DNA of 20,082 bases, taken from IMG/VR virus record IMGVR_UViG_3300045996_000314, positions 1 to 20,082 of that record. One strand, 5' to 3'. The DNA comes from a virus. Below, piece by piece: positions 1,489 to 18,483 of the stretch (its first letter is position 1; each line of letters starts with the position of its first letter). The notes beneath the pieces were generated by a model. That model was given only the letters and a program-made list of their open reading frames with translations. It made no database searches and was not told the origin of the DNA. The position numbers and the translations under genes were made by a program.

Positions 1489-4400
1489 CTAGCGCAGCGT
1501 CGAGCCGAGCCGCGTGCTCGTCGCCCGTCGCGCCGGCTTCACATCCTCGAGCACGTCGGCGGCACCCGCACCGCGGCGGGCGTCGTGGTCGATGCGGTCG
1601 TACTCGCTCGGCGTCGGTGTAATCACCGTCTGGTAGATCGTCGTCTGGCTGCCGCCACCACCGCTGCGGGTCGGCACGTCGTAGCGCGGTTGGTTCGGCG
1701 TGACGGCAAGGGCACTGCGCGAGAATGTCGTCTCGAACCCGCTCATATAGCCGAGCGACGATTGCCGACCCAGTTCTTCAAACACACGCGATGGCGAGTG
1801 GATGCCGAGGCCCGACCGGGCTCCACTTGTCACCCCGGACGCGAACGCCGACCCTGCCGTCCGGCCGAGCCGGCTGTAGAAGTCCGGATTCACGTAGGTA
1901 TTGTCTTCGGCCAGGATGCCTTTGCGGACGACGCCGGTATTGACGCTCTTCCAGAAACCATCGGCGAGGCGCTGCCAACCGTTGATGATCGTCGGCGCGC
2001 CTGATCGGATGCGCGCCCGGACCATGTCGGTGACCGACGTTGCGGACATAACACGGCGCGCCGCATTGACCGCAGCTTGTGCGACAGACACGGCCGCGTT
2101 GACCACGAGCGGCATACCGTCGCGGATGCCCCTTGCCAGCCCCTCGTCCATGTTGATGCCGACCGGGACCATCCTCTTCGCCGGGGAGGAGATACCGGCC
2201 GCCTGCTTCGCGGCGCTGATCGCATTGGTGACGACCGCGACCGCCGTACCCGTTACTCGCGGCTGCCCGGCGCGCAGGCCACCGGAAAGCCCGGCCGCCA
2301 TTTGGACACCGAAGTCTGTCCAGACCTTCGATGGCGAGCTAATCAACGCGGTAACGGCGGCGCCGACGTTGGCGGCAGCCATCAGTGCCGACGCCGCCGA
2401 CGAGACAGCACCGATCTGCGACCGGAGCCCGCCGGCGAGCCCCGCTCCGGCGGCACGGCCGATCGCGGCCATTGTGCCGGGAAGCTGGCTGAATGCGCCG
2501 ACGATTGAGCTGGCCGCGGCCTGCGCGGCGCTGACCGCGCTAGAGAAGCCCGACTCTATCCCATTGGCAAAGGCGTCTCCTGCCCGCTGCCCATCGTTGG
2601 CGATCTTGCCGGCGAGCGCTCCGATGATATTGCTGATCCGCTGCGCGGCATTGGTCGCGGCCTGCGCCGCCCGGTTCATGCCGCCGGAGATGGCTACAAC
2701 GACCCCGGACATGCCAATCGCCACTCTCGTCGCGATGCTGTTCATCGCCGTCCCGATGGTGGCGGACAGGGATGCGAACACCGTCGCGACCCCCGTCTGA
2801 AGATTCGCGAGGGCCGATGCCGCCCTCGTCACCATCGTCGTGAATCCGGTCCCGACCGCCGTGTTCAGGGTCGCCATCGCCACTGTTGCCGACGTGGCAA
2901 TTGTCGTGAAGGCCAGGGCGACGCCGGTCTGCAGGTTGAACATGGCGAGCCCGACCTGTGCCACCATGATCGTGAAGGCGGTTGTCACGGCCGTACTCAG
3001 AGTGGGCATCGCCGTTGAGACAGCGAGTCCGATATTTCCAAAGGTCGTCGTGATGCCGGTTTGCAGGTTGAACATGGCCAGGCCAACCTGCGCGACCATC
3101 GTCGTGACTCCCGTGCTGAGCGTTGTGCCCCACAGGGCGACTTCGGTCTGAATCGTCGTGTTCACAGATGCGAGTTCTGTCTGGACTTGCGTCGCCAGAC
3201 CGGCAAACATGCCGCTGCCCGCGTCTTCTGGGATGAAGTCGCCCTTGTAGCCGAGTGGCGAGGCGCCGCCGTCACCGCCGCCGCCGAATTGGAAGTCCAG
3301 ACTGATCGGCACCGGCACAGTGATTGGCCCCATGATGGAGATCGCGGCCTTCGCGGCGGCAATGATGTCCTCCATGCTCGGCGTATTCACTTTGCCGATC
3401 GTCATGTCGAAAATCACCTTCATGGGGACTTCGGGCGCAGCATCGCCGAGCGCGATTTGCTGTTGAATCGCGTCCTTGATTGCACCCAACGCAGGCAGAA
3501 CGACGTCGCCTATCTCCGCAAGCAAGTCGATCGTCGCCTTGACCTGTGATCCGGCGAAATACTGGTCGATGCGATTGTTGATCGTGGAAAGCGCGCTCCC
3601 GGCGCTGAAGTCGACGTTGCCGATTCGAGCGATAAGGTTGAATACCGCCTCGACCTTCGTGCCGGCGAAGAATTGCGAGACACGATTCTGGATGACGCTC
3701 GCCATATTGCCCCAACTCTCGACGAGCTTGGGCGCGGCAACATTCAGCGTCCAGCTTCCAAGGTCGGCAACAATCGGGCCTATGCGCCTCTTGATCGTTT
3801 CGGCCATGTTGCCCCAGCTCTCGAGGATCTTGGGCGCGCCGACATCGAGCGTCCAGTTGGCAAGATCAACGATAGTATTCGCCAGTCGACCTTTGATGAA
3901 TTGATTGATTTGCGCGCCGAGGCCGCCGCCACCACCGCCGCCGCCCATTGCGCGACCAAAGCCGGAGCCAAAGGTGCCGCCGCCGCCGCCGCCAAATTGA
4001 ATGCGCGGCGCGACGAGATTGAGCACCCATTGGACGCCATCGGTCACGTAAGGCGCTCCTGCCATGACTTTCTCATTGATCGCCTGGGCGATGCTCTTTC
4101 CTGCGGTGATCGACCAGTCTCGAATGGTGACGCCGACGCTTGGAATCGGCACGTCGCCAGTGCCGCCCATCGCCCGGCTGAATCCTGAGCCAAAGGTTCC
4201 GCCGCTCGTGGCCCCGCCAAGCACAAAGTCACGGATCGCGCTGCCGATGCTCTTCGCCGCGCTGATGATCCATCCGGCGATGTTGACAGCGACACTGGGA
4301 TGGGTGATTGCTCCGGTGCCGATCATTGCTCGGGCAAAGCCTGTTCCAAAGGTGCCACCCGACCCACCGCCGAGCACGAAGTCAACGATGGCACTGCGGA

Positions 4401-6798
4401 GACTCTGGAGTGCCGAGACGATCCAACCGCCGATCAGGACCGCGACAGTCCCGATATTGACACCCTGGCCACCTCCGCCCCCTAGAGCGGCGATGTCGCC
4501 GGCGGCGCCGCTTGCTCCTGCCATGCCGCGGCCTGCGACCCATTCCTGGATCGCGCCCCAGAGACTCTTGGCGGCGCTGATAATCCAACCGCCGATCAGG
4601 ACCGCGATCGTCCCGAGGTTGATCCCCGCGCCGCCGGTACCGCCACCGAGCGCGGCGAGGTCACCGGCGGCACCGCTCTGCCCAGCGGGCCCCTGGCCGA
4701 GTACCCATTCTTTGATGGCGCTCCAGACGCTCTTGGCGGCACTGATCAGCCAGCCACCGATCGTGAGGGCGATACTGCCGATGTTCTGGGCAGCCGCACC
4801 TGCGGCGGGAAGAGCGGTGCCTGTGACCCAGTCGGCGATGGCACCGCCGACATCCACCGCAGCGCTAACAAGCCAGCCGCCAATACGGAGGGCAACCGCT
4901 GGGATGTCGAGCGCGTCGACGAGTTGGGTGAACCCCTCCCATACTCGCTGAAGGCCACGGCCTGCGTCACCCAACTCTTCCGGCAGGCGATCCCAGAGCG
5001 CCGACCATCCGCCCTCCTGGAACGCGGAGATCAAGTCGCTCACGCTGTCGCTGACGAGGCGGAAGCCGGAGACGAGAGATTTCAAGGGGCCGGCAGCTGC
5101 GGCCCAGCGGGGATTCGAGAGGTCGAGCAGACGGCCAAACGCGGTGATCGAGTCAATGACTCGATCGGTGCCACGAGCCAGGCCCTCAAACCATCCGCCG
5201 AGATCATTGAGTCCGATATTCCGCAGGCCCGCACCGACACCAAAGAGCACCGCCGACAGCGGATCTGTAACTTGGTTGAGCGCCTTGAACCTCGGCACGA
5301 ACTTGGCCACAAAGTCGTCGGCGATGTCACCGATGCCGAGGAAGTTCGTTTTATAGGCGAAATACAGCGCGGTCGCCGCTAGGCCTATCACGCCGAACGC
5401 CCGTGCTCCGATAGCGGCGAAGCGCCCGAACCGGCCCAGGCCACGACTGAACTTGCCGAGGATGCCCGGCGCGGTCTGGAGCGTCGCCAGCGCTGCCCGC
5501 GTCTCAAGGATGCGCGGCAGCATAATCAGGAACGCGCCCGCCGCCAGCAGGGCGGCTCCACCGATGCCGAGCACCGCCGCCGCAACGATGCGCAGCGGTC
5601 GCGGTATCCCAATCATGCTCTCGGTGATCCGGGCGATCAGGTCCGCGAAGAGCGTCAGACCCGGCACCGCCTCGGCCATGATCGTGCCAAGCAGCGTGCT
5701 AACGCCCTCCGTCGCCCGCTGCCAGGCGCCCTTGAGCGTGTCGAGCCGCTTCGCTGCCTGCTCCGCCGCGATCCCGCTCTGGCTCATCTCGCCGGTCATG
5801 GCGCGGATGTCGTCGCCGCCGGTGAGCGCGGCGAGCCCCATCACGTCGATCGCCTCCGCGCCGAAGATCGTGCCGAGCGTGAGCGCCTTCTGTTCGTCGG
5901 TCGCCCCGGCTAGCGCGGTACTGAGTTGATCGAAGAGCGGCGGAAAGCCGATGAAGTTGCCTTGCGCGTCGAAGGCGTCGATGCCGAGCCGCTCCATCTC
6001 CGCCGATGCGTCGGACGTCGGATCGACGAGATTCTGGATACCACGCGCAAGGCTCACGCCCGCGTCGGCACCCTTGAGGCCGTACCCGGTAAAGACGGCA
6101 ACCGACGCCGCCGCCTCATCGAAGCCGACGCCGAACGACGCCGCCACGGGCCCGATGTTCCGCATACCCATAATGATGTCGCCGACGCCGGCACTTGATT
6201 CGTTCGCGGCCACAGTGAGGATGTCCGCCGCCCGGCTTGCGTCGGTCATGGCGATGTCCGAATCGACGATCGCCGGACTCCAGGTATTCATTGCCTGCGT
6301 GACGCCGGTTAGGGCCACCGGCAACGTCTCGCCGGTGGCGGATGCCAGGTCGACGACGGCTTGCGTCGCGCCGTGCGGGCCGAGCGCCTGCTCGGCATCG
6401 ATACCGGCCTTGAGCAGCGCATCCATCAGGGCCGAAACTTCCGGCGCGCTGTATTGGCTATTGACGCCGATGCGCCGCGTCTCGTCGGCAATCCGCCCCA
6501 TCAGATCGGGCGTTGCGCCGCGCCCCAGCGTGGCTTCGATATTGGCCAGTCCCTGTTCGAGATCCGCTGCCGCCTTGATGCCGGCACCGAAGGTGGCGAT
6601 CATGGCCCCACCGAGCACGGCGAACCCGCGCCCGGTGTCGTTCATTGCCCGCTCGTTTCGTGACGCCCAGTCGGTCAGACCACGGTTGGCGCCGCCCGCC
6701 TGACCGAGCCGACCCATCGCCGACTCGGCCCGCGCCGCGTTCGCCATGAAGCGGTCGATCTCGAGGTCAATGACGGCTGTCGCTGTGCCGAGTAGCAC
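1489..6798 (-). CDS. Tape measure protein (TP901 type)
   Basis: A 1769-residue protein that sets tail length and helps DNA delivery. Residues about 75-390 match the TP901-type core (for example GVNSQYSAPEVSALMDALLK, then GPVAASFGVGFDEAAASVAV and ALTLGTIFGAEAIDV). Two hydrophobic segments follow, about 401-427 and 459-482. Then come tandem repeats containing IGGWIISAAKS, Gly-rich linkers, WGNMA repeats, and AQVGLAMFNLQTG repeats. Near the C-terminus, SSPSKVW, SSPAKRM and HSPSRVF are repeated SPS motifs usual in tape measures. No peptidase or transglycosylase motif was seen. GTG start with GGGAG nine bases upstream. It follows the chaperones, as expected. Confidence 0.96.
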   Translation of the reverse strand: MLLGTATAVIDLEIDRFMANAARAESAMGRLGQAGGANRGLTDWASRNERAMNDTGRGFAVLGGAMIATFGAGIKAAADLEQGLANIEATLGRGATPDLMGRIADETRRIGVNSQYSAPEVSALMDALLKAGIDAEQALGPHGATQAVVDLASATGETLPVALTGVTQAMNTWSPAIVDSDIAMTDASRAADILTVAANESSAGVGDIIMGMRNIGPVAASFGVGFDEAAASVAVFTGYGLKGADAGVSLARGIQNLVDPTSDASAEMERLGIDAFDAQGNFIGFPPLFDQLSTALAGATDEQKALTLGTIFGAEAIDVMGLAALTGGDDIRAMTGEMSQSGIAAEQAAKRLDTLKGAWQRATEGVSTLLGTIMAEAVPGLTLFADLIARITESMIGIPRPLRIVAAAVLGIGGAALLAAGAFLIMLPRILETRAALATLQTAPGILGKFSRGLGRFGRFAAIGARAFGVIGLAATALYFAYKTNFLGIGDIADDFVAKFVPRFKALNQVTDPLSAVLFGVGAGLRNIGLNDLGGWFEGLARGTDRVIDSITAFGRLLDLSNPRWAAAAGPLKSLVSGFRLVSDSVSDLISAFQEGGWSALWDRLPEELGDAGRGLQRVWEGFTQLVDALDIPAVALRIGGWLVSAAVDVGGAIADWVTGTALPAAGAAAQNIGSIALTIGGWLISAAKSVWSAIKEWVLGQGPAGQSGAAGDLAALGGGTGGAGINLGTIAVLIGGWIISAAKSLWGAIQEWVAGRGMAGASGAAGDIAALGGGGGQGVNIGTVAVLIGGWIVSALQSLRSAIVDFVLGGGSGGTFGTGFARAMIGTGAITHPSVAVNIAGWIISAAKSIGSAIRDFVLGGATSGGTFGSGFSRAMGGTGDVPIPSVGVTIRDWSITAGKSIAQAINEKVMAGAPYVTDGVQWVLNLVAPRIQFGGGGGGTFGSGFGRAMGGGGGGGGLGAQINQFIKGRLANTIVDLANWTLDVGAPKILESWGNMAETIKRRIGPIVADLGSWTLNVAAPKLVESWGNMASVIQNRVSQFFAGTKVEAVFNLIARIGNVDFSAGSALSTINNRIDQYFAGSQVKATIDLLAEIGDVVLPALGAIKDAIQQQIALGDAAPEVPMKVIFDMTIGKVNTPSMEDIIAAAKAAISIMGPITVPVPISLDFQFGGGGDGGASPLGYKGDFIPEDAGSGMFAGLATQVQTELASVNTTIQTEVALWGTTLSTGVTTMVAQVGLAMFNLQTGITTTFGNIGLAVSTAMPTLSTAVTTAFTIMVAQVGLAMFNLQTGVALAFTTIATSATVAMATLNTAVGTGFTTMVTRAASALANLQTGVATVFASLSATIGTAMNSIATRVAIGMSGVVVAISGGMNRAAQAATNAAQRISNIIGALAGKIANDGQRAGDAFANGIESGFSSAVSAAQAAASSIVGAFSQLPGTMAAIGRAAGAGLAGGLRSQIGAVSSAASALMAAANVGAAVTALISSPSKVWTDFGVQMAAGLSGGLRAGQPRVTGTAVAVVTNAISAAKQAAGISSPAKRMVPVGINMDEGLARGIRDGMPLVVNAAVSVAQAAVNAARRVMSATSVTDMVRARIRSGAPTIINGWQRLADGFWKSVNTGVVRKGILAEDNTYVNPDFYSRLGRTAGSAFASGVTSGARSGLGIHSPSRVFEELGRQSSLGYMSGFETTFSRSALAVTPNQPRYDVPTRSGGGGSQTTIYQTVITPTPSEYDRIDHDARRGAGAADVLEDVKPARRATSTRLGSTLR
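2791..3110 (-). repeat. Coding tandem repeat in tape measure, AMFNLQTG units
   Basis: Units starting near 2791, 2923 and 3055 are spaced exactly 132 bases (44 residues) apart. The last two both encode MVAQVGLAMFNLQTG and differ at few bases; the 2791 unit is more diverged (RAASALANLQTG). The regular 132-base period suggests unequal recombination that changes tape measure length in frame. Confidence 0.82.
3701..3867 (-). repeat. Coding direct repeat in tape measure, WGNMA pair
   Basis: Two similar blocks, 3701-3765 and 3803-3867, 102 bases apart. Both encode a version of WTLDVGAPKILESWGNMA (the other reads WTLNVAAPKLVESWGNMA). This is a recent-looking internal duplication of 34 residues. Confidence 0.8.
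4066..4906 (-). repeat. Coding tandem repeat in tape measure, six IGGW units
   Basis: Six diverged units, each with an IGGWIISAAKS-like block followed by an SAIxEWVLG-like block and a Gly/Ala-rich linker. The IGGW codons are near 4880, 4749, 4584, 4421, 4268 and 4110, so most units are about 150-165 bases (51-55 residues); the first interval is about 131. The two middle units are the most alike at DNA level. The last unit (TIRDWSITAGKS) has lost the motif. The units look like hydrophobic helical hairpins joined by flexible linkers. Confidence 0.8.
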
Positions 6799-7179: not shown

Positions 7180-7684
7180 CGGGTTCGACCAGAAACGGCT
7201 GCAGCCGCTTCGCCGCCTCCTCTTCGTTGCCGATGCAGCGCAGCAGGAAGCGCTTGCGCTCCCGTTCGCTCAGGTCCGTGACCAACATGCAGTAGGGTTC
7301 GTCCTCGTCGATGTCCTCTTCCCGCAGGACCAACTTCGGCAGGACAAACCCGTAGACGCAGAGCAGGTCGGCGAGCTTTTGATTCTTGGAGAGATTCTGT
7401 TTGAACTCGCCGAGCGTCACGTTGCGCGGCCGGTTGCCCTGCCCCGACTCAACCTGCATCGCCTTGTGAACTTCCCGCTGGATCGTGTCGGGCATCAGGT
7501 CGAGTTCGGCCCGCTTCGTGATGTCGGGAATCCGAACGTGCGCCTCCCCACCCGTGTCGTGCAGCGGGAACCAGAAGCCGATCTCCTCCTGTCGCCGCGC
7601 TCGGCGGGCATCGGCCCGCGTCGGGATGCGGTGCTCTTCGACCGCATCCGTGACGATCGTGTCCTGGGATCCGTTCTCGCTCAT
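7097..7684 (-). CDS. Tail assembly chaperone, upstream frame (gpG-like)
   Basis: A 195-residue product made in the unshifted frame; such chaperones coat the tape measure during tube assembly and are absent from the virion. It has a polar N-terminus, then LMPDTIQREVHKAMQVESGQ, LGEFKQNLSKNQKLADLLCV and a helical SERERKRFLLRCIGNEEEAA region. Its position between tube and tape measure genes is diagnostic. GGAG lies upstream of the ATG. The last 28 codons overlap a second open frame, see the next feature. Confidence 0.88.
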   Translation of the reverse strand: MSENGSQDTIVTDAVEEHRIPTRADARRARRQEEIGFWFPLHDTGGEAHVRIPDITKRAELDLMPDTIQREVHKAMQVESGQGNRPRNVTLGEFKQNLSKNQKLADLLCVYGFVLPKLVLREEDIDEDEPYCMLVTDLSERERKRFLLRCIGNEEEAAKRLQPFLVEPAQPVPARAPEPVAAEAVRHIAVGPDEL

Positions 7685-13676: not shown

Positions 13677-13707
13677 TTGCCCCTCCACCACCCGGCCCCG
13701 ACCGGGC

Positions 13708-13743
13708 AAAACAAAACGCCCGCTCCCGAAGGGAACGAGCGTT
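13708..13743 (-). terminator. Intrinsic terminator between packaging/accessory genes and scaffold
   Basis: On the minus strand the arm AACGCTCGTTCCC (13743-13731) pairs with GGGAGCGGGCGTT (13727-13715) over 13 positions, including two G-T wobbles, around the loop TTC. It is followed by TTTTGTTTTG. On the plus strand no T tract follows, so it acts leftward. It would limit transcription from the packaging genes into the scaffold and capsid genes, unless it is read through or a promoter lies close by. I see no convincing promoter hexamers here. Confidence 0.88.
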
Positions 13744-13770
13744 GCCGGTGGCTCCCAACAAGAGCGGGCG
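13715..13770 (-). promoter_or_regulatory. Possible antiterminator pairing overlapping the terminator
   Basis: The transcript segment CGCCCGCTC (13770-13762) is perfectly complementary over 9 bases to GAGCGGGCG (13725-13717), which is the 3' arm of the terminator. The two structures exclude each other. A further GGGAGC (13756-13751) can pair with GTTCCC (13736-13731) of the 5' arm. This layout is that of an attenuator or a regulated terminator, but GC-rich inverted segments also arise by chance, and no ligand domain or leader peptide is recognised. Confidence 0.45.
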
Positions 13771-13806
13771 GGACGATGAATCGTGCGGCCCTCTTGAGTT
13801 ATGTCG

Positions 13807-14025
13807 CTAGTCTAGCACGCCTCCGCCTGTCCGCTCTGCTTCGTGCGGATGGATCGCCTGTTCGTCGATGATGTTGGCCACATGGTCAACACGCACAGCG
13901 ATGACGGGGTCAGTGTTGAATCGTCGCCAGTCATCCGCCGCATTTCGCAATTGATTGCGCACGAGCCACCATTCGCGAAGCGTGAGCGTGACTGTTACCG
14001 GCGTGTCTCGTACGTCGTCTGTCAC
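13807..14025 (-). CDS. Hypothetical protein, 72 aa, last gene before the terminator
   Basis: GTG start in a GTGA overlap, with AAGAGG six bases upstream. The sequence begins MTDDVRDTPVTVTLTLREWW and continues as VRNQLRNAADDWRRF, a beta strand followed by an amphipathic helix, with the acidic segment NIIDEQAIHPHEAE later. No family is recognised. It ends the accessory block; the intrinsic terminator begins about 60 bases after its TAG. Confidence 0.72.
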   Translation of the reverse strand: MTDDVRDTPVTVTLTLREWWLVRNQLRNAADDWRRFNTDPVIAVRVDHVANIIDEQAIHPHEAERTGGGVLD

Positions 14026-14123
14026 AGATACCTCTTCTCCAGATACCGCAGGATCATCGACAGCGCCCGGTGCAGCACGCGGGCAAAGTCACGCATCTCT
14101 TCCGAGGTTGCGTGCTCGCTCAT
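14022..14123 (-). CDS. 33-aa peptide, partial copy of the preceding gene's start
   Basis: Begins MSEHATSEEMRDFARVLHRA and ends ILRYLEKRYL, so it is predicted to be one amphipathic helix. The N-terminal ATSEEMR repeats that of the 88-aa zinc-finger gene upstream. ATGA joins it to that gene, and GTGA joins it to the next. It could be a genuine micro-protein, or a translated remnant left by a duplication of the gene start. No function can be assigned. Confidence 0.58.
   Translation of the reverse strand: MSEHATSEEMRDFARVLHRALSMILRYLEKRYL
14092..14108 (-). repeat. Start-region repeat, copy B2 (partner 14343-14359)
   Basis: Exact partner of B1. Together with the shared ATGAGCGAGCA start, it makes the beginning of the 33-aa ORF a shortened copy of the C2H2 gene's beginning. 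Confidence 0.9.
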
Positions 14124-14386
14124 TCTGGCAACCTCGCCCAATAGCTTTGTGGCGCAAGCGTCCTCAGCACGTCTTGTCGCAGCGAATGATTCTTGCCGTC
14201 GCGTCGATAGAGCAGGTCGCAGACATGGATAGGATGATCGGCGTGCCCAAGTTCGCCAGCGACCTGATGCGGGCACGGTCGATGCCGAAAGAACGTCCGT
14301 GGCCGAGCGTAGGCACGCCCACACCGCTCGCACCGGAGTTGCCGCATCTCTTCCGAGGTCGCCGTCTCTGGCCGCTGCTCGCTCAT
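14120..14386 (-). CDS. Small protein with a C2H2-type zinc finger, 88 aa
   Basis: The segment beginning C19-ER-C22-GRAY and ending H35-RPCP-H40 has the spacing C-X2-C-X12-H-X4-H of a classical zinc finger. Tyr and Phe sit at the usual hydrophobic core positions, and CG follows the second Cys side as in many C2H2 fingers. A second cluster with H48, H51, H54 and C56 could bind another metal. The first residues, MSEQRPETATSEEMR, resemble those of the next gene (MSEHATSEEMR), with a 17-base exact DNA repeat. Both ends are ATGA overlaps. The finger suggests nucleic-acid or protein binding; its target is unknown. Confidence 0.77.
   Translation of the reverse strand: MSEQRPETATSEEMRQLRCERCGRAYARPRTFFRHRPCPHQVAGELGHADHPIHVCDLLYRRDGKNHSLRQDVLRTLAPQSYWARLPE
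14343..14359 (-). repeat. Start-region repeat, copy B1 (partner 14092-14108)
   Basis: A 17-base exact repeat encoding the TSEEMR part near the N-terminus of the C2H2 gene. The partner lies at the same place in the following 33-aa ORF. Confidence 0.9.
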
Positions 14387-14394
14387 CGCTTGCC
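14373..14394 (-). repeat. Gene-junction repeat, copy A1 (partner 14645-14666)
   Basis: A 22-base segment covering the SD, the overlapping stop/start (GGCAAGCGATGA) and the first codons of the C2H2 gene. It matches 14645-14666 at 21 of 22 positions. It encodes GKR-stop for the upstream gene and M(S/I)EQR for the downstream gene. Confidence 0.88.
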
Positions 14395-14658
14395 TCGCTC
14401 AGCCGACACCCATCCCTCGCCGTAGCAATACGGGCAGCGCATGCGCCCGCGCTGGATCTGGATTGCGACATGAACGCCGGTCACAATCTGTCGGATGCGC
14501 GTCTGCGTGACGCCCTCGCGTCGTGCGAGTTCCGTGTAGGGTGTTTGCCTGGCTATGTGCTCGACAAACAATGACCATGCGCGATCGTTCGCCTTTTTTG
14601 GTCGCTCTGGAATCGCAGGATACCGCTTCTGGATGTCCGTCATGCGCTGCTCGATCAT
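14383..14658 (-). CDS. Helix-turn-helix protein resembling sigma-70 region 4, with a CxxCxGxG motif
   Basis: A 91-residue putative DNA-binding protein. Residues about 40-62, TPYTELARREGVTQTRIRQI, match the pattern of sigma-70 region 4.2 and related helix-turn-helix domains (first helix TELARREG, turn GVT, recognition helix QTRIRQIV). This is followed by RCPYCYGEGW, one copy of the CxxCxGxG zinc-type motif known from DnaJ. The N-terminus, with PERPKKANDRAWSLFVEHI, is basic and helical. No sigma region 2 is present, so a complete sigma factor is unlikely; a late-gene regulator or nucleic-acid-binding accessory protein is more plausible. GAGGGCAAGCG precedes the ATG, and both ends are ATGA overlaps. 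Confidence 0.8.
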   Translation of the reverse strand: MIEQRMTDIQKRYPAIPERPKKANDRAWSLFVEHIARQTPYTELARREGVTQTRIRQIVTGVHVAIQIQRGRMRCPYCYGEGWVSAERGKR

Positions 14659-14666
14659 CGCTTGCC
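14645..14666 (-). repeat. Gene-junction repeat, copy A2 (partner 14373-14394)
   Basis: Same junction element at the start of the helix-turn-helix gene, 272 bases upstream in transcription. One base differs, changing Ser to Ile at codon 2. Confidence 0.88.
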
Positions 14667-14915
14667 CTCGTTTTCGAGTTCGCCGGGGTCCAAAAACAGA
14701 TTCCGCAGCACTTCGTACGATGCCGCCGGGTCGTCACGCGGCACGATCTCGTCAATCACTGCGCGCCGATCATGGAGGCCATTCACGAGCACAATGGGCA
14801 TAGTGGCCGGCGTGTCGAGGAAGAGCCGGCCACCGTCCCACCGGGCGACCGCGCCCCGCTCCAACGCTCGACGGAGCAGGGTGCGTGCGGCGGCGACGTC
14901 CGGCGAGTGGATCAT
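14655..14915 (-). CDS. Hypothetical protein, 86 aa
   Basis: Starts MIHSPDVAAARTLLRRALER and includes a compact beta-like stretch (AVARWDGGRLFLDTPATMPIVLV is the centre). It ends ELENEGKR. No family is recognised. ATGA overlaps join it to the genes on both sides, and the GAGGCGGC sequence just before the start serves as SD. Its last codons, encoding GKR, belong to a junction repeat that recurs at the end of the next gene. Confidence 0.72.
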   Translation of the reverse strand: MIHSPDVAAARTLLRRALERGAVARWDGGRLFLDTPATMPIVLVNGLHDRRAVIDEIVPRDDPAASYEVLRNLFLDPGELENEGKR

Positions 14916-15214
14916 GCCGCCTCATCCTTCGTGCCCGTATGCCGGTCAATGGCGTTGATCAGCTCCCGCACGGCTGCCCGCTGGTCCTCAGTCATGTGGT
15001 CCGTCAGTGGCGCCCAGCAGCGCACCACGCCCCGCGCTGCCTCGACGAGTCGCCGGTTCTGCGCCGGCGTCCACGGGCGCGCCTGGTGCCGCTCAGTGGC
15101 GCACGCCTCGCACGTCATCGACCGCGCCGTTGTGCGGTAGCCGAGGCCAAACGAGTCGATCGGCAACTGGTGCCCGCAGACGTTACAGATGCGCGTCGGT
15201 CGTGGTGCGATCAT
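14912..15214 (-). CDS. Small zinc-ribbon protein, 100 aa
   Basis: Two CxxC pairs, C10-NV-C13 and C35-EA-C38, about 21 residues apart, are the layout of a zinc ribbon. The spacing and the following basic residues resemble the N-terminal ribbons that precede HNH or endonuclease VII domains in phages, but no HNH motif follows. The C-terminal half (about 48-93) is helical. ATG 15214 is preferred to the adjacent GTG 15217 because GGAGG is six bases from ATG but only three from GTG. The end encodes DEAA and supplies GATGAGG as SD for the next gene, with an ATGA overlap. A nucleic-acid-binding role is inferred. Confidence 0.78.
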   Translation of the reverse strand: MIAPRPTRICNVCGHQLPIDSFGLGYRTTARSMTCEACATERHQARPWTPAQNRRLVEAARGVVRCWAPLTDHMTEDQRAAVRELINAIDRHTGTKDEAA

Positions 15215-15443
15215 CACACGCCTCCGTGCCTTCGATCATCCGCTTCCATGTCGCCAAATCGAGCATGAATCTCGCCACGACGGCATCTTCGTATGGTGAG
15301 TCCAGGCCCAACGCCTCCGCCGCCTCAATCAAGCGGTAGGATGGCATCGACTTCAGGGTCGTGTTGAGTGATTGCAGCATGGCGCGTGCAAATGCTGTCG
15401 TCTCCGCGATGCGTGAACTGCGCGGCGGTCGTGGTGCGATCAT
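15183..15443 (-). CDS. Hypothetical protein, 86 aa
   Basis: ATGA overlap with the preceding gene and GGAGGA six bases before the ATG. Apart from its basic N-terminus MIAPRPPRSSR, the protein looks helical (FARAMLQSLNTTLKSM, YRLIEAAEALGL, ARFMLDLATWKRMI). No domain is recognised. Its first 25 bases, start codon included, match the first 25 bases of the next gene (start 15214) at 24 positions. It overlaps that gene by 32 bases. Confidence 0.75.
   Translation of the reverse strand: MIAPRPPRSSRIAETTAFARAMLQSLNTTLKSMPSYRLIEAAEALGLDSPYEDAVVARFMLDLATWKRMIEGTEACDDRTTTDAHL
15190..15214 (-). repeat. Start-region repeat, copy C2 (partner 15419-15443)
   Basis: The first 25 bases of the zinc-ribbon gene, 229 bases downstream of copy C1 with a single mismatch. 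Similarity stops sharply after codon 8. Confidence 0.92.
15419..15443 (-). repeat. Start-region repeat, copy C1 (partner 15190-15214)
   Basis: The first 25 bases of the 86-aa gene, ATG included. They match the first 25 bases of the zinc-ribbon gene at 24 positions and encode MIAPRPxR in both. Confidence 0.92.
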
Positions 15444-16788: not shown

Positions 16789-16890
16789 TCAACCCCTTTT
16801 GTGCTCGGTCAACGCCGCCCACCACACCACGCCATTAGCGGCAACGAGCACAACGACGATGACAAACGCCAGCCAATCAGGTAGCCCCAT
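16789..16890 (-). CDS. 33-aa single-span membrane peptide
   Basis: The peptide starts MGLPDWLAFVIVVVLVAANG and continues VVWWAALTEHKRG. Residues about 6-27 form one strongly hydrophobic, Val/Ala-rich segment flanked by Asp5 and a basic C-terminus, so a single transmembrane helix is predicted. ATG directly follows the TAG of the 62-aa gene, with GAGGAGG as SD eight bases upstream, and its TGA directly abuts the ATG of the head morphogenesis gene. A membrane peptide in the head operon could be a small holin-like or superinfection-related protein, but its size and lack of family features leave this open. Confidence 0.62.
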   Translation of the reverse strand: MGLPDWLAFVIVVVLVAANGVVWWAALTEHKRG

Positions 16891-16918
16891 CTATGCCGCC
16901 TCCTCGTCCTCGCCCTCG
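16891..16918 (-). repeat. Gene-end repeat, copy D1 (partner 17080-17107)
   Basis: End of the 62-aa gene, coding for EGEDEEAA-stop and containing GAGGAGG, the SD of the next gene. About 24 of 28 bases match the portal end. Confidence 0.8.
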
Positions 16919-17079
16919 ATCTCCATCGTTCCACGAAGCATCTTGGAGTACACGGGGCGAATCTTAGGAATCGGCAGGTTGTCCCATTCGGACGGCGCTG
17001 GCCGGAAGTCAAACGAACGCACGCCGGTCAACTCCCTGCCGTTGACCTGAACATGATCGGGGTTATAGCCCGTTGCCAT
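16891..17079 (-). CDS. 62-aa protein sharing its N-terminal motif with the major tail protein
   Basis: Small acidic protein beginning MATGYNPDHVQV and ending EGEDEEAA. The N-terminal GYNPDHVQV closely matches GYNLDHVQV at the start of the major tail protein (7743-8288), although the two genes are about 8.8 kb apart. The C-terminal EGEDEEAA repeats the end of the portal upstream. The ATG directly follows the portal TAG stop, and GAGGAGG eight bases upstream is a strong SD. No domain is recognised. Its position between portal and head morphogenesis protein suggests a head-related or accessory role, but nothing in the sequence proves that. Confidence 0.8.
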   Translation of the reverse strand: MATGYNPDHVQVNGRELTGVRSFDFRPAPSEWDNLPIPKIRPVYSKMLRGTMEIEGEDEEAA

Positions 17080-17107
17080 CTACGCCGCCTCCTCATCTTC
17101 GCCTTCG
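17080..17107 (-). repeat. Gene-end repeat, copy D2 (partner 16891-16918)
   Basis: End of the portal gene, coding for the same acidic tail and supplying the SD of the 62-aa gene. The two copies flank the 62-aa gene as direct repeats about 189 bases apart, exactly one gene length. Confidence 0.8.
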
Positions 17108-18483
17108 CCCTCGTCAGGCGACTCGAACGTGCTCACCATGCGCAGTGCCGCTTCCGTCTCGCGGCTCTTCTCGGCCAGGATCATCTTCACCTGATCGGTT
17201 TCGTAGCCCATCTCCCGGATAATCGCCTCGAACGGCATCCCGGCCCGCAGCTTGACCTCGGCGAGATCCCACTTGTCTTCTTCGGACATCGGCGCGGCCG
17301 GCTCCCAGTTGGTCCGCAGCTTGCCCGGCTCGACGGGCTGCCCCTGCAAGCGCAGTCCGTAGCTGACGGCCTCGCTCCACGTCCAGCCGAACGCCCGCTG
17401 CCGGTCGACGATCTTCGCGACGAACGGCGCCTCTGCCGTCCTGAGCGCCCGCCCGCTTGGGAAACCGCCGCTCATCTCGAGGTAATGCACCGGCACCTTC
17501 GAAACCCTGGCGACGCATTTGTCGATGAAGTCGGCGACGGTGATGTACTTCGCAATATCCGCCGCCGCGAACTCGCCGAACGTCGGCGTCTTGTCTTCGC
17601 CCGGCCGACTGAAGAGCAGCATGATCCGGTCGATGCCGGCCTGCACCCGTTGCAGCGACACTTCGCTCAGCGGGTCGGACATGTCCGCGTCGGTGATGAC
17701 CTTCTGCGGGAACGCCGCGAACTCGTTGGCGAGGAGCATGTTGATATAGGTCTGATTGAGCGCGTTCTGGAGCGGGATCACGTCGCGCAGTTCGCTCCGC
17801 CCGTACTGGCCCGTGCGCGCATTGTTGCCGAAGTGGAACACGGGCACCGTGTCAGGGACGGCGAGTGGAATCGACCAACTCTGCTCACCGTCCTCGGTGT
17901 ACTGCTCAAAGGCATTCGGCGTCGTCGGCATGCCGCTCGGCGCCCGGTTGCGCGTGATGTATTTCTCGATGCGATTGGGCCAGTAGAGGTTCAGCCGCAG
18001 ATAGTCGTCGTCGATCTTCCATGCCTTTGCGGCGAGCTCGCGCTGCCCCGGCCGCTCGGTCGAGTAGCGCACGCGGATGTGCCGCGCCTCGTTCGGCCAG
18101 ACGTTGATGCGTCCGGTGAGTGGATCCGTCTCGACGATCACGTAGCCATCGCCGATGCCCATCGCCTCGGCCTCGACCTCGCCTTCGCGCACGTCCAGCT
18201 GATTCCCGTCCCACAAGTCCTGCGCCTGTTGGCTCAGGGCGTCGCTGTCCGCGCCGAACCCGGCCACCTGCAGGCGGTCGGTGTGCGCGTCAACGACAGA
18301 GCCGCAGCGGTTGTAGGCGAAGGCGGCGAAGGTCGCGCCGAACGTGCTCTCGAACTTCGGCGTCGCGAAGGCGAGTTGATGGACGCCACTGACGTAGCGA
18401 TCATACAGGTCGTACCGCTGCGCCTGGATCGTGTCACGAAAGGAGGTGACGGCCCACTTGAGCGGATCAAACGTTGGCGGCAT
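17080..18483 (-). CDS. Portal protein (SPP1 gp6-like)
   Basis: Forms the dodecameric ring at the capsid vertex through which DNA is packaged and ejected, and it docks the terminase. The 467-residue length fits SPP1/HK97-type portals. The stretch around YGRSELRDVIPLQNALNQ (middle of the protein), followed by INMLLANEFAAFPQKVI, is the stem/clip-preceding region typical of the Gp6-like portal family. The protein ends in an acidic tail, EGEGEDEEAA. The ATG at 18483 was chosen over a longer frame because CAGGAGAG lies six bases upstream and the longer version (35 extra residues, Cys/Arg rich) reads as shadow sequence. The codons of the acidic tail form the GAGGAGG SD of the next gene. It lies between terminase and head morphogenesis protein, the standard order. 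Confidence 0.95.
   Translation of the reverse strand: MPPTFDPLKWAVTSFRDTIQAQRYDLYDRYVSGVHQLAFATPKFESTFGATFAAFAYNRCGSVVDAHTDRLQVAGFGADSDALSQQAQDLWDGNQLDVREGEVEAEAMGIGDGYVIVETDPLTGRINVWPNEARHIRVRYSTERPGQRELAAKAWKIDDDYLRLNLYWPNRIEKYITRNRAPSGMPTTPNAFEQYTEDGEQSWSIPLAVPDTVPVFHFGNNARTGQYGRSELRDVIPLQNALNQTYINMLLANEFAAFPQKVITDADMSDPLSEVSLQRVQAGIDRIMLLFSRPGEDKTPTFGEFAAADIAKYITVADFIDKCVARVSKVPVHYLEMSGGFPSGRALRTAEAPFVAKIVDRQRAFGWTWSEAVSYGLRLQGQPVEPGKLRTNWEPAAPMSEEDKWDLAEVKLRAGMPFEAIIREMGYETDQVKMILAEKSRETEAALRMVSTFESPDEGEGEDEEAA

What the first reader, a model, noticed from the sequence alone, without database searches (positions are those of the whole stretch)
14092..14666. Ladder of duplicated gene-start junctions across three adjacent tiny genes
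Seen directly: 14645-14666 and 14373-14394 match at 21/22 bases and span SD, ATGA stop/start overlap and first codons. The second gene's next codons are then copied exactly (17/17) in a third gene (14343-14359 and 14092-14108). The gene bodies are unrelated; similarity covers only the translation start. This resembles in concept the start-associated sequences of Cluster K mycobacteriophages, but here the repeat includes the start codon and coding bases. Inference: a junction module (end of gene n, SD, start of gene n+1) is copied, and new small genes are gained or swapped by recombination at these short homologies.
Basis: partly seen in the sequence, partly recalled or inferred. Interest (0 to 1): 0.72.

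Follow-up and report, generated by a model that had tools for sequence, protein, structure and literature searches.

The report
Copied gene-start junctions flanking phage genes
In a chain of very small virus genes, the stretch of DNA where one gene ends and the next begins has been copied between neighbouring genes four times, and related viruses show that whole genes are gained or lost exactly between such copies, so this is a real footprint of how phages swap small genes, though the general principle was already known.

Summary
The window carries four junction duplications, every one between adjacent genes: 17079/16890, 15443/15214, 14658/14386 and 14386/14123. Apart from tape-measure and GC-rich repeats, the longest exact same-strand repeats in 20 kb sit at these gene starts. 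In 107 related, non-redundant loci, start similarity is concentrated in neighbouring genes (14/1845 adjacent vs 15/20921 other pairs, p=1e-8; p=6.5e-5 without the window and L003). No close relative of this block was found, so an empty site cannot be shown for the window itself. Relatives do show it: a capsid-family pair differs by a 94-aa gene between 9-nt start repeats, and Cluster F1 mycobacteriophages Mozy and Kimberlium differ twice by one small gene between 21-nt repeats spanning the start codon and first codons. One correction: the third gene's TSEEMR belongs to a conserved small-protein family, so the middle gene (14120-14386) looks like a chimera, not a simple start-signal copy. The repeats are not SAS elements. 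Closest precedent: Island3/Brujita (PMC3029335).

The parts
17076..17112 (-). Rung 1, copy A: 3' end of portal gene (..EDEEAA), TAG stop, start of 62-aa gene
   Evidence: 37 nt, 84% identical to copy B; start-anchored score 16
16887..16923 (-). Rung 1, copy B: 3' end of 62-aa gene (..EDEEAA), TAG stop, start of 33-aa gene
   Evidence: last 10 residues 9/10 identical to portal's
15419..15443 (-). Rung 2, copy A: start of 86-aa gene, ATGATCGCACCACGACCGCCGCGCA
   Evidence: 18 nt exact, 24/25 overall
15190..15214 (-). Rung 2, copy B: start of 100-aa zinc-ribbon-like gene; also read in another frame as the C-terminus of the 86-aa gene
   Evidence: sequence
14645..14666 (-). Rung 3, copy A: end of 86-aa gene 14655-14915, ATGA overlap, start of 91-aa gene
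   Evidence: 21/22 to copy B
14373..14394 (-). Rung 3, copy B: end of 91-aa gene, ATGA overlap, start of 88-aa gene
   Evidence: 21/22
14343..14386 (-). Rung 4, copy A: N-terminus of 88-aa gene, MSEQRPETATSEEMR
   Evidence: 11 nt + 17 nt exact matches to copy B around a 12-nt indel
14092..14123 (-). Rung 4, copy B: N-terminus of 33-aa gene, MSEHATSEEMR
   Evidence: conserved family in L005, L082-L092
16891..17079 (-). 62-aa gene lying between the two rung-1 copies
   Evidence: no relative at 1e-3 in the loci
15183..15443 (-). 86-aa gene lying between the two rung-2 copies
14912..15214 (-). 100-aa gene, weak zinc-ribbon / endonuclease VII-like matches
   Evidence: below curated cut-offs
14383..14658 (-). 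91-aa gene lying between the two rung-3 copies
   Evidence: no relatives in viral contigs
14120..14386 (-). 88-aa gene between the rung-4 copies: borrowed N-terminus plus C2H2-like body; most atypical codon usage in the window
14022..14123 (-). 33-aa gene of a conserved small-protein family (EMRDF..VL..AL.MI.RYLEKRY)
   Evidence: no Pfam or PHROG family

Best explanation
The duplicated junctions are recombination scars of single-gene turnover in a tightly packed, ATGA-linked operon. When a small gene is gained (or when a gene is duplicated and one copy's body is then replaced), the crossover falls at the gene boundary, and a short stretch around the stop, ribosome-binding site, start codon and first codons ends up on both sides of the new gene. 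The two copies are direct repeats in register with translation, so recombination between them can delete exactly one gene and leave its neighbours intact. Shown: the repeats, their restriction to adjacent gene starts or ends, their excess over controls, and empty/filled pairs of the same form in relatives. Inferred: that the window's four rungs arose this way, the recombinase used, and the order of events. For rung 4 the best reading is duplication of the 33-aa gene followed by replacement of one copy's body, giving a chimera.
For: Rungs real and non-random. Within-locus start pairs with score >=16: 7/22766, vs 6/300000 between loci and 0/111715 at internal codons. Adjacent-gene excess 10.6-fold at score >=12, 6.8-fold without window and L003. 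The closest long relative L003 has a 21-nt exact repeat AGGCATTGACGGCATGAGCGA at two adjacent starts. Filled/empty pairs: L148/L161 (9-nt CTGATGGCC), L085/L087, L074/L078, L154/L151. F1 phages: Mozy has a 110-aa gene between 21-nt GGAGGAAGC(A/G)TGAGCAGCGA repeats, Kimberlium one hybrid copy; a second Mozy gene lies between 21-nt repeats encoding MCGGCE. 16 of 23 clustered indels lie within 15 nt of an annotated start (2.3 expected). Cutting the window between copies preserves both neighbouring products at all four rungs. Small genes, above all the 88-aa one, have less adapted codon usage than the structural genes. The L005 relative carries TSAEMREF in the 33-aa family member.
Against: No empty site is known for the window's own genes; no other copy of the rung-3 sequence in IMG/VR. 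Most F1 boundary indels have little or no repeat (16 of 23 clusters under 8 nt), so long repeats are not needed for gene turnover and could be by-products. Boundary breakpoints are also expected from random recombination plus selection against broken genes. Repeats of 18-25 nt are below the ~30 bp quoted for RecA/Red recombination (PMC2327257). Frame preservation follows largely from anchoring at the start codon.
Confidence: 0.62

Rival explanations
1. Functional constraint or convergence: efficient coupled translation starts (GGAGG, ATGA, early-codon bias, MS(D/E) N-termini) look alike, so similar starts are expected without copying.
For: Between-locus start pairs are about 6-fold more alike than internal codons at score >=12; several L003 and F1 genes begin ATGAGCGA.
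Against: Between-phage start pairs share the same constraint but reach score >=16 in only 6/300000 cases; the excess is concentrated in adjacent genes, which constraint does not predict. Matches include identical synonymous codons (ATGATCGCACCACGACCG) and, in rung 1, the 3' coding end of the upstream gene.
Confidence: 0.12
2. Plain tandem gene duplication followed by divergence of the bodies.
For: Pairs are always adjacent; rung 4 shares a conserved N-terminal coding segment.
Against: Shared stretches are 84-100% identical and stop abruptly; blastp finds no similarity beyond them. Gradual divergence would not spare only the first 6-8 codons. Duplication plus body replacement remains possible and is included in the best explanation.
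Confidence: 0.1
3. A regulatory element of the Start-Associated Sequence type, bound by an RNA or protein factor that controls translation of a gene set.
For: Position over the ribosome-binding site and start codon, as in Cluster K (PMC3203893).
Against: Four different sequences, each in two copies only; they extend into coding bases or the upstream gene's 3' end; none contains the SAS consensus.
Confidence: 0.05
4. Random illegitimate recombination with selection for intact genes; the repeats are chance microhomologies with no role.
For: Most F1 boundary indels carry under 8 nt of repeat; this is the standard model for mycobacteriophage mosaicism (PMC3029335).
Against: Does not give 18-25 nt near-identical pairs at several of 30 adjacent junctions; shuffles give none.
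Confidence: 0.11

Closest known systems
Island3 gene 68 insertion relative to Brujita (Cluster I mycobacteriophages; Pope et al. 2011, PMC3029335)
   Same: One orphan small gene present or absent, bounded by a short direct repeat at a gene boundary, with one hybrid copy in the empty genome; very like rung 1 here, where the 62-aa gene repeats the portal's C-terminal residues.
   Different: There the repeat is about 50-60 bp at gene 3' ends and single; here 18-37 nt, mostly at gene starts, and four in one 20-kb contig, with no empty relative.
Conserved boundary sequences in phage mosaicism (model cited in PMC3029335; the lambdoid/HK620 work itself was not read here)
   Same: Short conserved sequences at gene boundaries as crossover sites.
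   Different: There shared between phages at corresponding boundaries; here each rung's sequence is private to two neighbouring genes of one phage.
lambda ninR chain of ATGA-linked genes (Kroger and Hobom 1982, cited in PMC8022706)
   Same: Very tight small-gene operon with ATGA stop/start overlaps.
   Different: No evidence here of a ninR relationship; duplicated junctions are the feature, not the overlap itself.
Start-Associated Sequences of Cluster K mycobacteriophages (PMC3203893)
   Same: Short repeats over translation starts of small genes; the authors also suggested they could be recombination targets.
   Different: One 13-bp sequence at 11-19 starts, upstream of the start codon; here four different two-copy sequences that include codons.
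PeSL mobile regulatory cassettes of T4-like phages (Arbiol et al. 2010; known by title via PMC4503421, paper not held)
   Same: Repeated short elements proposed to mediate modular shuffling.
   Different: Promoter plus stem-loop in intergenic space (from my own knowledge); here the genes overlap or abut and the element is a translation start.

Membership tests
Start-Associated Sequences (Cluster K) | 13-bp consensus GGGATAGGAGCCC upstream of starts | tested here: not met
   Absent from the 30 start regions printed
Start-Associated Sequences (Cluster K) | Same sequence at many (11-19) starts in a genome | tested here: not met
   Two copies each even with 3 mismatches; genome incomplete at 20 kb
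Start-Associated Sequences (Cluster K) | Inverted repeats upstream (ESAS) | not tested
   Not examined at the individual starts
Boundary-repeat single-gene insertion (Island3/Brujita kind) | Direct repeat at gene boundaries flanking one small gene | tested here: met
   Rungs 1-4, each flanking one gene
Boundary-repeat single-gene insertion (Island3/Brujita kind) | Near relative lacks the gene and has one hybrid repeat copy | tested here: inconclusive
   Met in relatives (L148/L161, Mozy/Kimberlium); no close relative for the window
Boundary-repeat single-gene insertion (Island3/Brujita kind) | Bodies on either side unrelated | tested here: met
   blastp finds only the shared ends
ninR-type interlinked chain | Successive genes joined by ATGA stop/start overlaps | tested here: met
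   Junctions at 15443, 14915, 14658, 14386, 14123; the one at 15214 overlaps by 32 nt instead
PeSL regulatory cassette | Promoter and stem-loop in an intergenic space | tested here: not met
   No intergenic space at rungs 2-4 and direct stop-start abutment at rung 1
Plain gene duplication | Similarity through the gene bodies | tested here: not met

The most novel reading that the evidence does not exclude
Phages repeatedly build new small genes by placing a copied translation-start module (ribosome-binding site, start codon and first 6-15 codons of a neighbour) in front of an unrelated or unexpressed stretch of DNA, so that many orphan phage genes are chimeras with a borrowed N-terminus; the 88-aa gene here (borrowed N-terminus, least adapted codons) would be one caught early.
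Probability: 0.2. Interest if true: 0.75.

Novelty: new variant of a known kind. Interest (0 to 1): 0.5.

Why it matters
How phages gain and lose the many tiny orphan genes of their operons is an old question, argued between random illegitimate recombination and short boundary homologies. Start-junction repeats with coding bases are a simple, searchable signature that marks single genes as recently gained, predicts which gene can be deleted cleanly, and can be counted in thousands of sequenced phages. The adjacent-pair excess and the Mozy/Kimberlium cases show that the signature is not private to this contig.

Tried and rejected
SAS membership (different sequences, two copies each). Convergence of start signals (between-phage and internal-codon controls). 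Plain duplication. Searches for relatives of g91, g88 and g100 and of the rung-3 sequence in viral contigs found none; the portal scan also returned nothing, perhaps because the query began at an over-extended TTG start. No DNA match in annotated phages. The L003 nuclease gene found only L003 itself. Rfam gave nothing in the window. PHROG/Pfam matches of the small genes are below cut-offs and were not used for function. My first F1 indel count used self-called starts and gave 16/46; it was redone with annotated starts (48 sites) and with clustered events (23).

Full report
What the window is. It is an IMG/VR record of 20,082 bases, linear, without near DNA relatives among annotated phages. Genes run on the minus strand: large terminase, portal, a MuF-type head morphogenesis protein, a block of eight small genes, scaffold, capsid, tail genes and tape measure. 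The capsid is 69-85% identical to L002-L006, about 50% to Arthrobacter phage Eileen and 32-35% to Cluster F and K mycobacteriophages (cluster names partly from my own knowledge).

The observation. Both stated matches are exact as described. Two further rungs exist. Rung 2: ATGATCGCACCACGACCG at 15443 and 15214, with CGCGCA following after one mismatch. Rung 1: 37 nt at 84% covering the portal's last codons, its stop and the next start, repeated one gene further on. All four rungs join adjacent genes. Outside tape-measure and simple GC-rich repeats, no other exact same-strand repeat in 20 kb exceeds 15 nt.

More than chance. I wrote a small gene caller (it recovers 55 of 77 annotated starts of phage Lorde exactly) and applied it to 107 non-redundant loci with a related capsid or with the small 33-aa gene. 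Start regions (-20 to +30) were compared in register, leaving out pairs with similar bodies. Score >=16 (match +1, mismatch -2): 7 of 22,766 within-locus pairs, 6 of 300,000 between-locus pairs of similar G+C, 0 of 111,715 internal in-frame pairs. Score >=12: 14 of 1,845 adjacent pairs against 15 of 20,921 others; without window and L003, 9 of 1,792 against 15 of 20,211, p=6.5e-5. The window is extreme: 3 of 30 adjacent pairs score >=16, none of 435 others. Thresholds were chosen by me and loci share ancestry, so the p-values are guides.

Empty and filled sites. No relative of the window's own small genes g91, g88 or g100 was found. Among relatives by capsid, collinear pairs differing by a gene-sized insertion mostly break at gene starts: L148 has a 94-aa gene between two CTGATGGCC copies and L161 has one copy; L085/L087, L129/L127, L074/L078 and L154/L151 are similar with shorter or no repeats. 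In six Cluster F1 mycobacteriophages, 34 of 48 empty sites lie within 15 nt of an annotated start (5.6 expected); after clustering shared events, 16 of 23 against 2.3. Seven of 23 clusters carry repeats of 8 nt or more. Two are textbook cases: Mozy holds MSSEFWWG... (110 aa) before MSSEAQNL..., each with GGAGGAAGC(A/G)TGAGCAGCGA; Kimberlium has the left flank of the first joined to the right flank of the second. On the other strand Mozy has two genes starting MCGGCE with a 21-nt repeat and Kimberlium has one. The F1 start test also shows decay with distance: score >=12 in 4/390 adjacent pairs, 13/1500 two to five genes apart, 12/11092 further, 0/12982 internal (paralogous pairs not removed there).

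What the rung-4 pair is. The 33-aa gene belongs to a conserved small family found in 12 contigs, with (A/E/D)EMR(D/E)F in L005, L082 and L083. So TSEEMR is its own coding sequence, and the 88-aa gene carries the foreign copy: its N-terminus MSEQRPETATSEEMR resembles L005's MSVPAPERTETSAEMR in length, while its weakly C2H2-like body is unrelated. Its codon usage is the least adapted in the window (-0.21 per codon; structural genes +0.14 to +0.42). I infer duplication of the 33-aa gene and replacement of one body.

What the rung-2 pair shows. The second copy is also read in another frame as the last ten or so codons of the 86-aa gene, as if that gene had lost its own end when the copy was joined to it (sequence; inference). 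Removing the DNA between copies keeps both neighbours' products at all four rungs, which is consistent with, but not proof of, single-gene excision.

Mechanism and limits. The best account is gene turnover at operon junctions, leaving or using short direct repeats. Breakpoints at starts alone would also follow from selection for intact genes; the long repeats and their adjacency are the discriminating part. Whether the repeats drive recombination or are left by it is open; 18-25 nt is below the ~30 bp quoted for RecA and Red (PMC2327257).

Prior knowledge. Pope et al. 2011 described Island3 gene 68, bounded by a 3'-end repeat shared with gene 67 and absent from Brujita, and called it the first such event in mycobacteriophages (PMC3029335). 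SAS elements are a different thing (PMC3203893). I found no paper describing start-codon-spanning coding repeats between adjacent genes as a general signature, but my literature access was open-access full text and eight searches only.

Noticed in passing
window 13690-13830 (minus strand); L003:2800-2890 and 7290-7390; L005:2140-2250: A similar intergenic element (TAGACTAG-like box, then GC-rich hairpin and T-run) precedes the scaffold gene in the window, L003 and L005, and a second copy precedes the small terminase region in L003; possibly a promoter/leader/terminator unit. No Rfam match.
   Followed up: partly
window 14022-14123; L005:2023-2163; L082-L092: A conserved 33-46 aa family ending RALLMIVRYLEKRY occurs in 12 viral contigs, in no Pfam or PHROG family.
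   Followed up: partly
window 17079 and 8288: The 62-aa gene and the 181-aa tail-region gene share the N-terminus GYN(P/L)DHVQV (8/9 residues), another possible shared gene start at a distance.
   Followed up: no
window 14120-14386: The 88-aa gene has the least adapted codon usage of the window and was skipped by my gene caller, so it is not certain that it is a real expressed gene.
   Followed up: partly
L005:141-1820: The MuF protein is fused to a C-terminal extension (FHGTS...GVYLAENQ...) that looks by eye like an ADP-ribosyltransferase domain.
   Followed up: no
L171 (Mozy), L167 (Kimberlium), L172 (Lorde): The start module GGAGGAAGC(A/G)TGAGC recurs at 3-5 starts with different bodies (MSGEIN, MSDGKRC, MSSEAQ, MSDADT) in these Cluster F1 right arms; not described in the papers I read.
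   Followed up: partly
L170 (JalFarm20) 23888 and 24752: A 24-nt identical junction CTAGCCGAAAAGGACCAGCAATGA two genes apart, with an 864-bp segment absent from four relatives and a 47-55 nt repeat at its edges.
   Followed up: partly
window 4077-4895: Six diverged tandem copies of about 160 nt inside the tape measure gene.
   Followed up: no
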